Source: a bacterium (GTDB taxonomy: Bacteria > JAJVIF01). Taken from it: a stretch of DNA of 64,000 bases. Below the pieces are notes generated by a model. The model had not been told where the DNA came from, made no database searches, and was given only the letters and a program-made list of their open reading frames with translations. A program made the position numbers and the translations under genes. Shown here in pieces: positions 27,422-33,986 of the stretch (position 1 is the stretch's first letter; each line of letters starts with the position of its first letter). The stretch covers positions 124,001-188,000 of the forward strand of contig JAJVIF010000001.1 in assembly GCA_022072165.1 (NCBI GenBank). The letters are read 5' to 3'.

Positions 27422-28144
27422 ATGCACACAGTCGCTATCGTGGTGGCCGCCGGCATTGGACGCCGGATGGGTCGCCGAGAGCCCAAAGCGCTGATTCCCA
27501 TTGGTGATCGACCGCTCCTCTACTACAGTGTCAAAGCCTTCAGTCTCGCTCCCAGCATTGACCGCATCGTGCTCACTGCACCTCCCGGATTCAACAAGCG
27601 ATTCGAACAGTTCGTTGCTGACCACGATCTCCACAAAGTGACCGCTGTCGTGCAGGGGGGCGATACCCGCCAGGCTTCTGTCTTTCAGGCGCTCGAAGAG
27701 TGTCCGGAAGAGACCACCCACGTGCTGATCCACGATGGGGCCCGACCGTACCTCACGGTCAGCAAGATCGAAGAGCTCATCACGCATCTGCGTGGGGGCG
27801 AGGAGGGGGTCGCGCTGGCGAATCCGGCGCGGTACACCCTGCGACGTCGGCTGCCGGAAGATTTCGCTGGCGAGCTCGTGGACCGGGATGAACTGATGGT
27901 GGTCCAGACACCCCAGGCGTTTGATTACGCCAAAATCCTCACGGCCCATGAACAGGCGCATCTGAAGGGACTGGAACTTCCGGATGACACCACCGTAGCG
28001 ACCGCCAACGGGATGCAGGTGAAGCTCATCAACGGGCACGACCTCAACTTCAAGGTGACCTACGCCTTTGACACCGAGATCGCCGAAGCGCTGTTGCCGG
28101 TCTGGCAGCGGACCATCGAGGCCGAAAAGCCGGTCAGCGTGTAG
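27422..28144 (+). CDS. ispD: 2-C-methyl-D-erythritol 4-phosphate cytidylyltransferase
   Basis: IspD transfers CMP to MEP in the non-mevalonate isoprenoid pathway. This 240-residue protein has the nucleotide-binding VVAAGIGRRMGRREPKAL, GGDTRQASVFQAL, the VLIHDGARPYL motif and QTPQAFDY. AAGGAGG precedes ATG 27422, and a TATAGT -10 candidate lies at 27366-27371. The next gene supplies the later pathway enzyme IspF. Confidence 0.95.
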   Translation: MHTVAIVVAAGIGRRMGRREPKALIPIGDRPLLYYSVKAFSLAPSIDRIVLTAPPGFNKRFEQFVADHDLHKVTAVVQGGDTRQASVFQALEECPEETTHVLIHDGARPYLTVSKIEELITHLRGGEEGVALANPARYTLRRRLPEDFAGELVDRDELMVVQTPQAFDYAKILTAHEQAHLKGLELPDDTTVATANGMQVKLINGHDLNFKVTYAFDTEIAEALLPVWQRTIEAEKPVSV

Positions 28145-28290: not shown

Positions 28291-29298
28291 ATGCGCATCG
28301 GGCTCGGCATCGACCTCCATCGCCTGATTCACGACCCGTCACGGCCGCTGCTGCTCGGTGGCGTGGAAATTCCCGGCGACCTCGCGCTGGAGGGGCATTC
28401 GGATGCGGACGCGCTGCTCCACGCCCTGACCGACGCCATCCTTGGTGCCCTGGGACTCGGCGACATCGGCGAGTACTTCCCGAACACAGACCCGCGCTGG
28501 AAGAATGCCGACAGTCAGCGCTTCCTGGAACATGCCCTGGTCGCCATGCGGCAGCGGGGCTACGTCGTGTGCAACATCGATGCCTGCATCGTGGCGGAAG
28601 CGCCGAAGCTGATGCCGTACCGCAGCGCGATTCGTGCCCGCCTGGCAGACCTGCTCCAGGTGGAGCCCGAAGCGGTCGGTCTGAAGGCCACTACCGCCGA
28701 GCAACTGGGGTCGCTGGGGCGGGGAGAGGGGCTCTGCGCACAGGTCGTCGTCCTGCTCGAACAGGAAGAGAAGCCAGTCCCGCCCGCGTTGAAAACCGCC
28801 GCCGATGCCACAGAGGCGCGTAAGAAAACGGCCGCGAAAAAGAGCAGCGCGTCCAAAACCGCGATCCCGGAAGCGACCATCAATCCTGCCAGCGTCATGG
28901 GGAAGGTCATTCAGGTCTGGGCCGATGGCGCGAGTCGCGGCAATCCTGGACCTGCCTCCATAGGCGTGATCCTGAAGACCCCAGAAGGTGGCGTCATCCA
29001 CACCGCATCACAGCGAGTCGGGGAAGTGACGAACAATGTCGCGGAGTACCGGGCGCTGATTTACGCTCTCCAGATCGGCAGCGCCATGATGCCCTCGCGC
29101 CTGGAGGTCATGATGGATTCGGAGCTGGTGGTGAAACAGATGAAAGGGGAGTACCGCGTCAAAGACGAGACTCTGCAGGGGCTCTACCGTCAGGCAAAAG
29201 TGGCAGAAAGCTCCCTCGATACGGTGACGTATCGGCATGTCCCGCGGGAGCAGAACAAGGAAGCTGATGCCCTGGCCAACCTGGCCCTCGATTCCTGA
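28291..29298 (+). CDS. ispF: IspF (MEcPP synthase) fused to an RNase HI domain
   Basis: One uninterrupted 335-residue frame joins two enzymes. Residues 1-160 are IspF, which cyclises CDP-ME-2P to MEcPP. Metal ligands are Asp8, His10 and His36 (GIDLH, EGHSDADAL), with a KATTAEQLG motif at 132-140. Residues 161-203 are a Lys/Ala-rich linker. Residues 204-335 are an RNase HI domain with the catalytic set Asp212 (ADGASRGNPGP), Glu252 (NNVAEYRAL), Asp276 (MMDSELV) and Asp326 (KEADALAN). ATG 28291 begins at the conserved MRIGLGID; the frame opens at 28195. No ribosome-binding site is seen before the internal Met203. Confidence 0.92.
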   Translation: MRIGLGIDLHRLIHDPSRPLLLGGVEIPGDLALEGHSDADALLHALTDAILGALGLGDIGEYFPNTDPRWKNADSQRFLEHALVAMRQRGYVVCNIDACIVAEAPKLMPYRSAIRARLADLLQVEPEAVGLKATTAEQLGSLGRGEGLCAQVVVLLEQEEKPVPPALKTAADATEARKKTAAKKSSASKTAIPEATINPASVMGKVIQVWADGASRGNPGPASIGVILKTPEGGVIHTASQRVGEVTNNVAEYRALIYALQIGSAMMPSRLEVMMDSELVVKQMKGEYRVKDETLQGLYRQAKVAESSLDTVTYRHVPREQNKEADALANLALDS

Positions 29299-29313: not shown

Positions 29314-32300
29314 TTAGAAGATCGTCACCTTGTACGAGGCTCTGATCGGATTCGACAGCGTCTGAGTCCCCGCGAAGACGTAGATCTCCCCGTTGTGGAC
29401 TGCCGCCGCATAGCCATAAATGGGGTTCGGCAGAGGCGAGCCGCTGCATGAGGCTGTACTCAGGGTGGTCCACTGACTCCCCGCCGCCGCCGTCGGGTCG
29501 AACTGATAGATGGTCGACTGCGCCACCGCACTGTCATTCAGGCCCCCGATGATGTACGCCCGGTTGTTCACGACTTCCACTTCATACAGCCAGCGATGGG
29601 CCGGTGCCAGGTCTTTGGCCACCCAGCTCGGATTAGTCGCGGTCAGGTCGTACTCGGCCACCGTCCTGGCATAGCTCTGTGCACCGCCGGCGGTCTCATA
29701 CTGCCCCGGCAGGACATACATCTTGCTGTTCAGCACTGCGACTCCATGCGCCCACTTGCGATCCGTGAAGGCCGGGATCGCGTTGCCGAAATCATTCTGG
29801 TTTGTCCATGTATTGGTCGCAGGGTTGTACACGGTAGTGGTGTTGACGCTGTTGGCGATCGATCCACAGCTGAATTCGTTGTACTCCCGGAATCCCCCTG
29901 GCAGCCAGAGGCGGTTGTTCCAGACCGCCCCAGCGGCGCGCCAAAGGCTCGGGTTGAGATTTGACCCGTTCGCAAAAGCGTTAGTTCCCAGATCAAACCA
30001 GCTGGTAGGGTTGTAGTGGAAACTGCAGGTCGAGACATAGGTCCCTTCGCCGCCGAGACAATAGATGCGATTGTTCAGCGCCAGCACCTCCAGGCCGGAC
30101 CGTCCCTCGCCTGCCTGGAAGCCCGTAAAGGTTCCGGGTAGCTGGGTGTAGCTGTTGGTGGCCGGGTCGTACTCCCACATCGCGTTGACTCGCCGGTTCG
30201 CTGAAGCCCAGTCTGGACTCCAGCCGCCAGCAATGTAGATCTTTCCGTTCAGGGTGTCGGCGGAATGCTCATACACCCGGATGGGGAAGTCGGCGATAGG
30301 GGTCACCGAGTAGCACGTTGGGGTGCCCCCGGTGGCGGTGACCGTCAGCGTCACTTCCGCGCTGTCCTGAGGCAGATTGTCCCGGACCTTGGCGCGTGTG
30401 ACTGTGGAACCAGCAGCCGAGTAAGTGCGGGTAACGACCGTCCCGATCGTAGCGCCGGTGACTTCAAAACCATTGCCCCCATTACCGTCAAGGTCGTAGT
30501 GCCCGGCAGGGTTCGACCAGAGGCCCAGGTCATCGGTGGAATCGACCAGGGTGAACTCCACCGTATCACCCACGCTGATAGCGAGCGGGCCAGGCGCGGG
30601 AGTCCAGGCGACATCTCCCTGCTTGCGTGCCTTGTACACCGCTACCGGCGGATTGTTTGGGGCCGGATTCACGGTGAGTGTCAGCGATACGGGGAGCGAA
30701 AACTGCAGCGTGGAGTCCTGCACCTTCCCGCGGATGTTCAGACTTCCGGCACTGCTGTAAGAGAGCGTCGCGACATTGCTGATGGCCGGGAGTGTGGTCT
30801 CAAAGCCGCCATTGCTCCCGGTGCCAGGATTTCCGTCGAGATCAAAATGTACGGCTGGCGTGGCCCAGGCATTGAGATCATCGGTGGAGTCGGCCAGCGA
30901 GAACTCGACGTTTTCGCCCGTGTTCACCACCAGAGGTCCAGGGGCGGGAGTCCAGGTCGGATCCCCGACCCTTCGCGCCTTCAGGCTGGCGACCGGCGGG
31001 TCATTCGGCGTCGCAGGATCGACCATCACCTCCACCAGCTGGTAGGTCGTAAAGTCCCGCACGAACGACTGCACACCACCATAGGCGAAGCCTGGCAGCG
31101 CCAGGGCTCCGTGATAGGTGTCCACCGCTGCGAGGACGCCGTAGTAAGTGCCGGGGAGCGGATTGTTGACATTCCCAACGCTGAGGGATGTGGTCCAGGG
31201 AAGCGACAGCGAACCATCTCCCGACGGGAATGAGGTGACCGTCTTGACCACCGGATCCAGTGCCGGGATGCTCAGGTGTACCGCTTCCAGGGTAGACGTG
31301 TGCGGCACATCAGTCCGGTTGAGATAGTCCGGAGCCAGGGCGAAGTTTTGCGGCCCGACCCCCACCAGGCCCGCCTGCCAGTCGCTGATCGCGACCTGGA
31401 TGCTCTGCACGACCCCGACCGCACCCTGTGTCCAGGCAGGGACCGGGGCAGCTTCCAGCAACACCGCTTCCTTGCGATTAAACGCGGGCAGGAAGTAGAC
31501 AGGATTCTTTCGGGACCCCGGTTGTCCAGTCGGGATGGCCCGGACTGCTGGCTGGCCATAAGAAACCTCGATCAGCAGCAGTGCTTCGAATTTGTTTCCC
31601 CGCACCACCATCGCATCGGTGGAGATTACGACCCGCTGGACATCGTCCGGTGACGCCATGCTCATGCGCCGATTGGCGATCCCAATGCCCTGGACTTCCG
31701 GGTCCGGATCGATGTCAGTGAAGAAGTCGAAGTAGGGGTTGATCGTCCCGGCATAATTGCGGGGCGTACCCACCAGCTCCGGGTGCTCCGCCAGCCAGTC
31801 GTAGCGACCGGTATAGCCATCAGCGTTGAGGATGAGCCCTCCTTCCACTTCGACAGGCGATGACTGCGTGCCATCGATGCCCCCCAGGACCGGACCGAGT
31901 CCCGGATAGCTGGTGACGAGCTGTGGTGTCACCACAATTACCCGGGGATCAAAAACATCCAGATCCTCCCGGGCGTCGGTCGTCCGGAAGGGATGTCGCA
32001 TCCGGAGGTCCACAAAGAGGTCCCCACCGCTCGTCCGCCCCATCCCCCTGATGCCAAAGCAGTCGGCGCACGGGCTCCCCTGAAAGTACTCCGCGACCTC
32101 CAGGGCAAAGAGGTCGCCGATGATCTGCCCTGCCCGCGTTGTCGGGAGCGAGAGCGCCTGAACTCCCGCAGTTAGCCCACCTTCGTGCTCCTCGACCCGC
32201 AGGTCGAAGACTCCGAACGGCACCGCCACGCTTGTGTGCTGGTCAAGCTGCAGTGTGGTAGCGGGATCAGCCACCGGGATTACCGGAGGTTGTGATGACT

Positions 32301-32376
32301 GTTGGCAGGAGCACAGCAGCAGCAGCGCTCCCAGGAGGAGCAGGGCAGAGGTGACAGGAGGTGCAGTCGGTGTCAT
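29314..32376 (-). CDS. Large lipoprotein: shared module, two PKD-like domains, Kelch propeller
   Basis: This 1020-residue protein has a lipobox LLCSC near residue 24. Residues about 30-450 are a module shared with the genes at 32541, 34413, 36210 and 55702. It includes GDLFALEV, a SPCADC pair, HPF, REDLDVFD, NADGY and NPVYFLPAFNRK. Two tandem PKD-like repeats follow (about 455-570 and 572-680), each with APGPLxxxxGxxVEF and DSTDDL. Residues 690-1020 carry Kelch-type repeats (GKIYIAGGW, NRIYCLGGEG, SKMYVLPGQY, NRAYIIGGL). GGAGGTCGAA precedes ATG 32376. Probably surface-exposed; function unknown. Confidence 0.85.
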   Translation of the reverse strand: MTPTAPPVTSALLLLGALLLLCSCQQSSQPPVIPVADPATTLQLDQHTSVAVPFGVFDLRVEEHEGGLTAGVQALSLPTTRAGQIIGDLFALEVAEYFQGSPCADCFGIRGMGRTSGGDLFVDLRMRHPFRTTDAREDLDVFDPRVIVVTPQLVTSYPGLGPVLGGIDGTQSSPVEVEGGLILNADGYTGRYDWLAEHPELVGTPRNYAGTINPYFDFFTDIDPDPEVQGIGIANRRMSMASPDDVQRVVISTDAMVVRGNKFEALLLIEVSYGQPAVRAIPTGQPGSRKNPVYFLPAFNRKEAVLLEAAPVPAWTQGAVGVVQSIQVAISDWQAGLVGVGPQNFALAPDYLNRTDVPHTSTLEAVHLSIPALDPVVKTVTSFPSGDGSLSLPWTTSLSVGNVNNPLPGTYYGVLAAVDTYHGALALPGFAYGGVQSFVRDFTTYQLVEVMVDPATPNDPPVASLKARRVGDPTWTPAPGPLVVNTGENVEFSLADSTDDLNAWATPAVHFDLDGNPGTGSNGGFETTLPAISNVATLSYSSAGSLNIRGKVQDSTLQFSLPVSLTLTVNPAPNNPPVAVYKARKQGDVAWTPAPGPLAISVGDTVEFTLVDSTDDLGLWSNPAGHYDLDGNGGNGFEVTGATIGTVVTRTYSAAGSTVTRAKVRDNLPQDSAEVTLTVTATGGTPTCYSVTPIADFPIRVYEHSADTLNGKIYIAGGWSPDWASANRRVNAMWEYDPATNSYTQLPGTFTGFQAGEGRSGLEVLALNNRIYCLGGEGTYVSTCSFHYNPTSWFDLGTNAFANGSNLNPSLWRAAGAVWNNRLWLPGGFREYNEFSCGSIANSVNTTTVYNPATNTWTNQNDFGNAIPAFTDRKWAHGVAVLNSKMYVLPGQYETAGGAQSYARTVAEYDLTATNPSWVAKDLAPAHRWLYEVEVVNNRAYIIGGLNDSAVAQSTIYQFDPTAAAGSQWTTLSTASCSGSPLPNPIYGYAAAVHNGEIYVFAGTQTLSNPIRASYKVTIF

Positions 32377-32473
32377 TTCGACCTCCGGAAGTCAATACTG
32401 AACGAGGGGGGAACGGTGAGTATTGTGCCGCAATCACTGGTAAAAATCGACAGACAAACGCTGCTGGATCAGT

Positions 32474-32511
32474 ACAAAAGACCGGACCCCGGTGCAGGCA
32501 CCAGGGTCCGG
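32474..32511 (-). terminator. Terminator of the 32541-33986 lipoprotein gene
   Basis: A 13-bp stem with one G-T pair (32482-32494 with 32499-32511, loop CAGG) is followed on the minus strand by TCTTTTGTAC. It separates this gene from the next one downstream. Confidence 0.85.
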
Positions 32512-32540
32512 AAACGGAAGACTTCGCTCAGGTTCGCGGA

Positions 32541-33986
32541 TTAGGCGATGTCAACAAAGACGACCTGAACGACGATCGGGTGCTGCTCGTTGCCGGAGGT
32601 GACCGGAACGGGGACAGCCGCGTTGTTGAGGGTCAGACCCTGCTCAAGGCCAGCAGCAGCGCTGTCCTGCTCGTCGACGAGGCGGACCGCGACGTACGCA
32701 CCAGCGTCCACACCACCATCAGCGCCATCGGCGTTGGTGATGGTCACGCCAGCATAGGTCACCGGATCTTCGACAGAGCCGGTACCAGTCGGAGTCGCGC
32801 TGACCGCAGCCTGAGCACCCAGCTCGCCAGCACCCAGCTCGATGGAGGCGATGCCGGACGCATTCGGGATCTCAGCCAGGCCGGTGCCGACGGTGGTCGC
32901 GAAGTCCTGGTCCACCACGGAGATGTCCGCCGTGATGGTGGAAGCCGCAGCCGCGCCGAGGGTGCCGGAGAGGTTGCTGAAGCCGACGCTCTCCAGGTCG
33001 ACGGCGCCGTGGGGCATCCGGTACGCGAAGAGGGCGGTGTTGTCCTTGGGCAGGCGATTCGCGCGCTTCTCAGCAGCGTTCGCACCACCGCGGGGATCGG
33101 TGTAGTTCGCGATGACAACGGCATCAAGGGAGATGGTGTTGCCAGGAGCGATGTTCAGGGTGACGAAGTTGCTCGCGGTCTGGCCCTGGTGCAGGACACC
33201 ATAACCAGTCACGTTCGGGGTGCCGGTCCAGGCGGAGACGTTGCCCCAGTTTCCGGAGGTCGCGTAGTTACCAGCGGAGTTGCCACCGTTGGAGATCGCA
33301 GCGCCACCGGCATTGGCGGTGCGGGAGTTCAGTCCCTCATCCACCAGAGCGCGGAACGGCCACGCGTTGGTGCCGTTGGAAGCGGTGTGGAAGCCGTCGA
33401 GCATGCCCGCGGGGTTGTAGTACCCATTCGCGTTCAGGATCGCCTTCGGGTTCAGGGTGATGTTGCCACCACCGATGGAGAAGGTGTAGTCATCGACGTG
33501 ATTGCTCTGGGTCGGGTCATCAACCGTTGCCGGGGCATCCACGAGGAAAACGACACGGCCGGAGATCCCGAGGTCCGCGCGGTTGCCGGCAGAAGCCGTG
33601 CCACCGGGGTTGGACGGGGACGGGAAGGCGTGGGCCACCTGATAGTTGAAGTCGATGGTGTCGTTCACCAGGTCGAGGTTGGTGAACGTGTTGGTGGCGG
33701 CCGGAGCCACAACCACACCGAAGTTATCGACGTTCAGGAAGAAGAGGTCGCCGATCGCCGCGCCACCACGGGCGGGGATGGCCTCGACCTTGGCGGTGCC
33801 AGCGGCAACGTCGAGGTCGAAGTGGAACGCGCCGGCGATGCTGGTGAGCGCGCCAGAGGGATCCACTTTCAGATCGCTGTCAAAGTTCGACAGCGCAGCG
33901 CCAGACGGAGCAACGGCGGAAGAGCCGGAGCAGCCCATCAGAGCGAGAACGGCGGCGCCAACGAGCGCCACGGTGAGAGTTCGCAT
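32541..33986 (-). CDS. Lipoprotein of the shared-module family (member 2)
   Basis: This 481-residue protein has a signal peptide and lipobox LALMGC, with Cys19. It consists almost wholly of the family module. Landmarks are GDLFFLNVDNFGV, QVAHAFPSPSNPGG, NRADLGISGRVVFL, NPAGMLDGFH, GYGVLHQGQTA, DPRGG, KRANRLP and FAYRMPHGAVDLE, ending SGNEQHPIV. It is closest to the 34413 gene. A leader of about 167 nt separates it from a TATAAT box. No enzymatic motif was found; I infer a structural or binding role at the cell surface. Confidence 0.85.
   Translation of the reverse strand: MRTLTVALVGAAVLALMGCSGSSAVAPSGAALSNFDSDLKVDPSGALTSIAGAFHFDLDVAAGTAKVEAIPARGGAAIGDLFFLNVDNFGVVVAPAATNTFTNLDLVNDTIDFNYQVAHAFPSPSNPGGTASAGNRADLGISGRVVFLVDAPATVDDPTQSNHVDDYTFSIGGGNITLNPKAILNANGYYNPAGMLDGFHTASNGTNAWPFRALVDEGLNSRTANAGGAAISNGGNSAGNYATSGNWGNVSAWTGTPNVTGYGVLHQGQTASNFVTLNIAPGNTISLDAVVIANYTDPRGGANAAEKRANRLPKDNTALFAYRMPHGAVDLESVGFSNLSGTLGAAAASTITADISVVDQDFATTVGTGLAEIPNASGIASIELGAGELGAQAAVSATPTGTGSVEDPVTYAGVTITNADGADGGVDAGAYVAVRLVDEQDSAAAGLEQGLTLNNAAVPVPVTSGNEQHPIVVQVVFVDIA

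What the first reader, a model, noticed from the sequence alone, without database searches (positions are those of the whole stretch)
28291..29298. IspF fused to a catalytically complete RNase HI domain
A single frame encodes MEcPP synthase (residues 1-160), a Lys/Ala-rich linker (161-203) and an RNase HI domain (204-335). The full D-E-D-D set is at Asp212, Glu252, Asp276 and Asp326. IspF is normally stand-alone or fused to IspD, whose gene here is the immediate upstream neighbour. RNase HI is known fused to other domains (for example a CobC-like phosphatase in mycobacteria), but I know of no IspF-RNase H fusion. A trimeric IspF would present three RNase H units on basic tethers. Whether isoprenoid synthesis and R-loop processing are linked, or this is simple gene fusion, is open.
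Basis: partly seen in the sequence, partly recalled or inferred. Interest (0 to 1): 0.75.

Follow-up and report, generated by a model that had tools for sequence, protein, structure and literature searches.

The report
Isoprenoid enzyme fused to RNase H
In two little-known bacterial phyla an enzyme of isoprenoid synthesis (IspF) and the only RNase HI are one protein, and in a branch that has switched to another isoprenoid pathway the IspF half has lost its active site yet is still kept on the nuclease, which suggests that it now serves the nuclease.

Summary
The fusion is real. Window 28291-29298 (+) encodes one 335-aa protein: IspF (1-158), a disordered linker, and RNase HI (204-335) with D212/E252/D276/D326. 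It is a conserved architecture: all 4 held genomes of the window's phylum and all 10 of a second, probably sister, phylum encode it; about 770 other genomes searched did not. In all 14 it is the only RNase HI and only IspF detected; RNase HII is separate.

Three genomes (G062-G064) lack IspG and DXR and alone carry HMG-CoA reductase, so they switched to mevalonate. In exactly these three the IspF metal ligands are lost, while the RNase H tetrad stays intact. The dead IspF domain keeps its length and fold (in a model) and is under purifying selection (dN/dS 0.45, 95% 0.30-0.65). The upstream IspD looks dead too, yet is constrained (0.25).

Best reading: besides its enzymatic job, the IspF part gives RNase HI a scaffold, probably a trimer, and this role outlived the enzyme. 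The trimer and any R-loop link are untested. The main rival is a fusion fixed by drift, as argued for mycobacterial RNase H-CobC. The 'basic tether' is not general. I found no description of this fusion in the papers held.

The parts
28291..29298 (+). ispF-rnhA fusion gene, 335 aa
   Evidence: open frame; Pfam; conserved in 14 genomes
28291..28764 (+). IspF (MEcPP synthase) domain, residues 1-158; metal ligands D8, H10, H44
   Evidence: PF02542 E 1.1e-59; IspF structures at TMt up to 0.94; site table
28765..28899 (+). linker, residues 159-203, Lys/Ala-rich; predicted disordered at 162-196
   Evidence: AlphaFold2 pLDDT below 50 at 162-196; charge table
28900..29295 (+). RNase HI domain, residues 204-335; catalytic D212, E252, D276, D326
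   Evidence: PF13456/PF00075; residues invariant in 14 of 14
27422..28144 (+). ispD, upstream neighbour; same order in 13 of 14 fusion genomes (in G002 ispD lies elsewhere)
   Evidence: PF01128 E 1.1e-53

Best explanation
One gene makes one protein. Its IspF half catalyses MEcPP synthesis in the MEP pathway (inferred from the conserved active site and genome context), and its C-terminal half is the cell's only RNase HI (inferred from the intact D-E-D-D set). The IspF half has a second role as a structural module for RNase H: most likely it forms the usual IspF trimer, so that three RNase H domains hang on flexible linkers from one core, giving avidity or placement on RNA/DNA hybrids. Shown: the fusion, its conservation in two phyla, the absence of another RNase HI, and the survival under purifying selection of a catalytically dead IspF domain on an intact RNase H after loss of the MEP pathway. 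Inferred: trimerisation of the fusion, its effect on RNase H activity, and that this effect is what is selected.
For: Fusion in 14 of 14 held genomes of two phyla and nowhere else in the samples. Sole RNase HI. Three genomes without IspG and with HMG-CoA reductase are exactly those with lost IspF metal ligands and intact RNase H. Dead IspF still passes the Pfam profile at 101.6/55.6/48.1 bits, is modelled as IspF fold and has dN/dS 0.45, bootstrap 0.30-0.65. Known IspFs are trimers held by sheet packing (PMC5821942, PMC2151065). Linker is disordered.
Against: The linkers differ in length and charge between lineages. Strands expected at the trimer interface are not preferentially conserved in the dead domains; two helices are. 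The stand-alone dead IspD is kept too, so retention is not explained by the join to RNase H alone. Only three MEP-less genomes are known. The G062 model used an alignment with true IspFs, so its fold is not independent evidence. No oligomer was computed or measured.
Confidence: 0.5

Rival explanations
1. Neutral fusion: two genes were joined by chance, each domain works alone, and the join was fixed by drift. After MEP loss the IspF domain persists because its clean removal without harming RNase H translation or folding is a rare event.
For: Precedent: RNase H-CobC (MSMEG_4305) was judged most probably fixed by drift (PMC7466739). The linker is variable. Constraint on dead IspF is relaxed compared with active IspF (0.45 against about 0.06). 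An open frame is needed anyway for RNase H downstream.
Against: Dead IspF is still constrained at amino-acid level, dN/dS clearly under 1; it kept full length in two genera; one of its helices is newly conserved; the unfused dead IspD is constrained too; no held genome of the two phyla has split or trimmed the fusion.
Confidence: 0.25
2. Repurposed pair: in the MEP-less branch dead IspD and dead IspF form a new complex with a function of their own, for instance regulatory or nucleotide-sensing, in which RNase HI takes part; in MEP-positive lineages the fusion is mainly a convenience.
For: Dead IspD has dN/dS 0.25 (0.17-0.36), stays in the same operon with overlapping ends and remains recognisable at 87/49/58 bits. 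A helix of dead IspF is newly conserved.
Against: In B. subtilis and E. coli no stable IspD-IspF complex was seen (PMC5821942). Only three genomes.
Confidence: 0.17
3. Metabolic coupling: isoprenoid diphosphates or CDP-linked intermediates bound by IspF control RNase H activity, tying R-loop processing to isoprenoid supply.
For: IspF trimers bind isoprenoid diphosphates in a central cavity (PMC2151065); the window protein keeps R144/E146, aligned with the cavity Arg142-Glu144 of E. coli.
Against: The fusion outlives the pathway; the arginine is Thr or Glu in several MEP-positive fusions.
Confidence: 0.05
4. The frame is one, but RNase HI is made separately by internal initiation near Met203.
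For: In the window protein an ATG lies at the domain border.
Against: No start codon is conserved there; the ATG has no Shine-Dalgarno-like sequence; G002 and G062 have no start codon at all in the 40 codons before the catalytic Asp.
Confidence: 0.03

Closest known systems
Stand-alone IspF (e.g. B. subtilis 5iwx, E. coli 1gx1)
   Same: Sequence, fold, metal ligands D8/H10/H44 in MEP-positive members
   Different: Here carries a C-terminal RNase HI; in three mevalonate genomes the active site is lost
IspDF bifunctional enzyme (Campylobacter 1w55, Helicobacter 8xhu)
   Same: IspF inside a larger polypeptide; IspD gene adjacent here
   Different: IspD is a separate gene here; the fusion partner is a nuclease at the C-terminus
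RNase H-CobC of Actinobacteria (Rv2228c, MSMEG_4305; NCBIfam PRK07238)
   Same: Same RNase HI type (3hst) joined to a metabolic enzyme by a variable linker
   Different: Partner is IspF and lies at the N-terminus; found in two other phyla; the partner is retained after losing its catalytic residues
Eukaryotic-type RNase H1 with N-terminal hybrid-binding domain
   Same: Works like it in outline: an N-terminal module and a flexible linker before the catalytic domain
   Different: The module is IspF, not a hybrid-binding domain; no nucleic-acid binding by it was shown

Membership tests
IspF (MEcPP synthase) | Family profile over the whole domain | tested here: met
   PF02542 201.7 bits; TIGR00151 198.1 bits, cut-off 116.45
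IspF (MEcPP synthase) | Metal ligands Asp8, His10, His44 (window numbering) | tested here: met
   Present in the window protein and all 11 MEP-positive fusions; lost in G062-G064
IspF (MEcPP synthase) | Homotrimer and MEcPP synthase activity | not testable with these tools
   Only monomer models were offered
RNase HI | Catalytic D-E-D-D | tested here: met
   D212, E252, D276, D326 invariant in 14 of 14
RNase HI | RNase H fold and profile | tested here: met
   PF13456 78.4 and PF00075 40.6 bits; the related G062 model matches 4e19 at TMt 0.95
RNase HI | Cleavage of RNA in RNA/DNA hybrids | not testable with these tools
   needs an assay
IspDF bifunctional enzyme (PRK09382) | IspD domain in the same chain | tested here: not met
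   IspD is a separate frame at 27422-28144; the model scores 211 of 417 bits needed
Bifunctional RNase H/acid phosphatase (PRK07238) | RNase H followed by a CobC-like phosphatase | tested here: not met
   Only profile positions 4-132 of 378 match; 144 of 326 bits

The most novel reading that the evidence does not exclude
A metabolic enzyme became a dedicated scaffold for a nuclease: the IspF trimer organises RNase HI, and after mevalonate replaced the MEP pathway the catalytically dead IspF (with a dead IspD beside it) was kept solely as part of the machinery that removes RNA/DNA hybrids.
Probability: 0.4. Interest if true: 0.82.

Novelty: new variant of a known kind. Interest (0 to 1): 0.68.

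Why it matters
RNase HI fused to a metabolic enzyme has been explained as drift. Here nature has done the control: the metabolic pathway was lost, the metabolic domain lost its active site, and yet it stayed on the nuclease under selection. That makes the question whether such fusions are functional directly testable and points to a natural scaffold, probably trimeric, for RNase H. It also shows two phyla in which the only RNase HI is tied to a gene of an essential pathway.

Tried and rejected
The genome-contig scan returned IspF-part matches only among the 80 loci kept, so no named organism was obtained. Single-domain trees do not settle whether there was one fusion event: RNase H tree, one clade not rejected (p-AU 0.557); IspF tree, p-AU 0.0635, with the window's IspF placed beside that of an unrelated genome, G011 (99/93). 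Absence of stop codons as evidence for a role of dead IspF was rejected: RNase H lies downstream in the same frame, and the chance of no stop under neutrality is not tiny anyway (about 9% at 0.46 changes per site). The basic linker as a general nucleic-acid tether was rejected. A paper search for IspF, RNase H and fusion found three papers, none of which treats such a fusion by title or abstract. Contamination or misassembly was rejected: 14 independent genomes agree. Internal initiation at Met203 was rejected as unlikely.

Full report
WHAT IS THERE. Window 28291-29298 (+) is one open frame of 335 codons. Pfam gives IspF (YgbB) over residues 1-156 (E 1.1e-59) and RNase H (RVT_3 E 5.7e-22; RNase_H 3.7e-10) over 207-332. 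The nearest solved relatives are B. subtilis IspF 5iwx (E 5.2e-48) for the first half, and LC11 RNase H1 3u3g, the RNase H domain of Rv2228c 3hst and Halobacterium RNase HI 4e19 for the second. AlphaFold2 with 12 homologous fusions gives two confident domains and a disordered stretch at 162-196 (mean pLDDT 85); Foldseek matches IspF structures at TMt up to 0.94. IspD lies directly upstream (27422-28144).

HOW WIDE IT IS. The window's genome (3.26 Mb, 4 contigs, 99% complete) and the three other held genomes of its phylum each have exactly one match, the full-length fusion, the others at 40-44% identity. All ten held genomes of a second phylum have it too. A profile search of 385 genomes (326 genera) found the full-length architecture only in these two phyla (seven genomes of that sample, 419-460 bits); all other listed matches cover the IspF part at 222 bits or less. 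A further 391 genomes around G050, one of the nearest other lineages in the RpoB tree, gave none (that call itself held no positive control, though nearly the same profile rang). In an RpoB tree the two phyla are sisters (SH-aLRT 94, just under the star threshold), so inheritance from a common ancestor is the simplest reading. The two domain trees are too short to prove one origin.

IT IS THE ONLY RNASE HI. In each of the 14 genomes the only PF00075 match is the fusion. RNase HII is present as a separate gene in all 14. Only one IspF match was found in each. So a gene of an essential pathway and the cell's RNase HI are bound together.

THE NATURAL EXPERIMENT. IspG (GcpE) is present in 11 of the 14 and absent in G062, G063 and G064. 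HMG-CoA reductase is present in exactly those three and in no other. DXR is missing there as well, though also in G003 and G066, which have IspG and whose genomes are incomplete. In exactly those three the IspF metal ligands are gone: D8/H10/H44 become E/G/R, S/H/Q and Q/Q/Q, and the Thr-Thr-x-Glu loop is lost or changed, while all 11 MEP genomes keep D/H/H. The RNase H tetrad is intact in all 14. The dead domain is nevertheless near full length and still passes the IspF profile (101.6, 55.6 and 48.1 bits), and the G062 protein is modelled with an IspF fold (TMt up to 0.92; the alignment held true IspFs, so this is not independent).

SELECTION ON THE DEAD PARTS. Between G063 and G064 (same genus, both MEP-less) dN/dS is 0.45 (bootstrap 0.30-0.65) for dead IspF, 0.16 for RNase H, 0.16 for the last 31 codons of the linker, and 0.25 (0.17-0.36) for the dead IspD upstream. 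In two intact pairs IspF stands at about 0.06 (synonymous sites are near saturation, so this is rough). Constraint on dead IspF is thus relaxed but real. The stretch aligned to window residues 76-90 is identical at 13 of 15 positions between G062 and G063 (LVLLSQTVTALxRxQ; permutation p 0.0016, the best of nine pairs tried), although it is variable among active fusions: a hint of a new binding surface. The IspD of these genomes has lost the lysine of the nucleotide-binding loop and an arginine kept in other rows (alignment; their catalytic role is from my own knowledge of E. coli IspD), and its end overlaps the start of the fusion.

MECHANISM. Shown: single-frame architecture, conservation, sole RNase HI, and a pathway switch with retention of a dead but constrained IspF part. 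Inferred: IspF trimerises as in known structures (PMC5821942; [quoted passage not shown]) and so presents three RNase H domains on flexible linkers. The RNase HI here is closest to the LC11, Rv2228c and haloarchaeal enzymes, and an added module that raises avidity is plausible (inference). What does not fit neatly: strands expected at the trimer interface are not preferentially kept in the dead domains, and dead IspD is kept as well. The rival that the pair was repurposed together therefore stays open. Metabolic control of RNase H by isoprenoids is unlikely as the main reason, since the fusion outlives the pathway and the cavity arginine is not conserved.

AGAINST KNOWN KINDS. IspDF enzymes join IspD and IspF. 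RNase H-CobC of Actinobacteria joins the same RNase HI type to a phosphatase, and its authors concluded that it was most probably fixed by drift (PMC7466739). The present case has another partner, another domain order and another distribution, and it holds an internal test of the drift idea that speaks against pure drift, though on three genomes only. A full-text search for IspF with RNase H and fusion gave nothing on point; the library lacks most subscription journals, so an earlier mention cannot be excluded. I therefore call it a new variant of a known kind (RNase HI fused to a metabolic enzyme), with the retained dead domain as the truly unusual part.

Noticed in passing
L159:8484-9263 (-), L160:7558-8331 (+), L161:263-1036 (+): IspD-like proteins of the three mevalonate genomes have lost conserved residues but are under clear purifying selection (dN/dS 0.25 for G063 against G064): a retained dead IspD of unknown role.
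   Followed up: partly
L157:2961-4142 (+) and equivalents in L155-L164: A membrane PIN-TRAM protein (YacL-like) precedes ispD and the fusion in the second phylum: a conserved three-gene order nuclease-like, ispD, ispF-rnhA. The Pfam matches are weak.
   Followed up: partly
L156:4978-5943 (-), L157:4861-5844 (+), L158:7379-8362 (-): G059-G061 have IspG yet their IspF lacks the loop histidine (H36 is Ala or Glu) and the cavity arginine is Glu. Whether these IspF domains are fully active is open.
   Followed up: no
linkers of the fusions in L155, L159, L160, L161 and in L152, L154: A proline motif before RNase H (LPPLPxAxxPxPG in one family of the second phylum, ELPPPLPxxKPGE in G001/G003) recurs in both phyla and is strongly conserved between G063 and G064.
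   Followed up: partly
window 28291-28764: In the IspF tree the window's IspF domain groups with that of an unrelated genome (L015, G011; 99/93) rather than with other fusions: exchange of the domain, or tree error.
   Followed up: no
window 29314-33986 (-): Downstream and convergent: a 1020-aa protein with a lipoprotein-like start and Kelch repeats, and a 481-aa secreted-looking protein without Pfam match.
   Followed up: no
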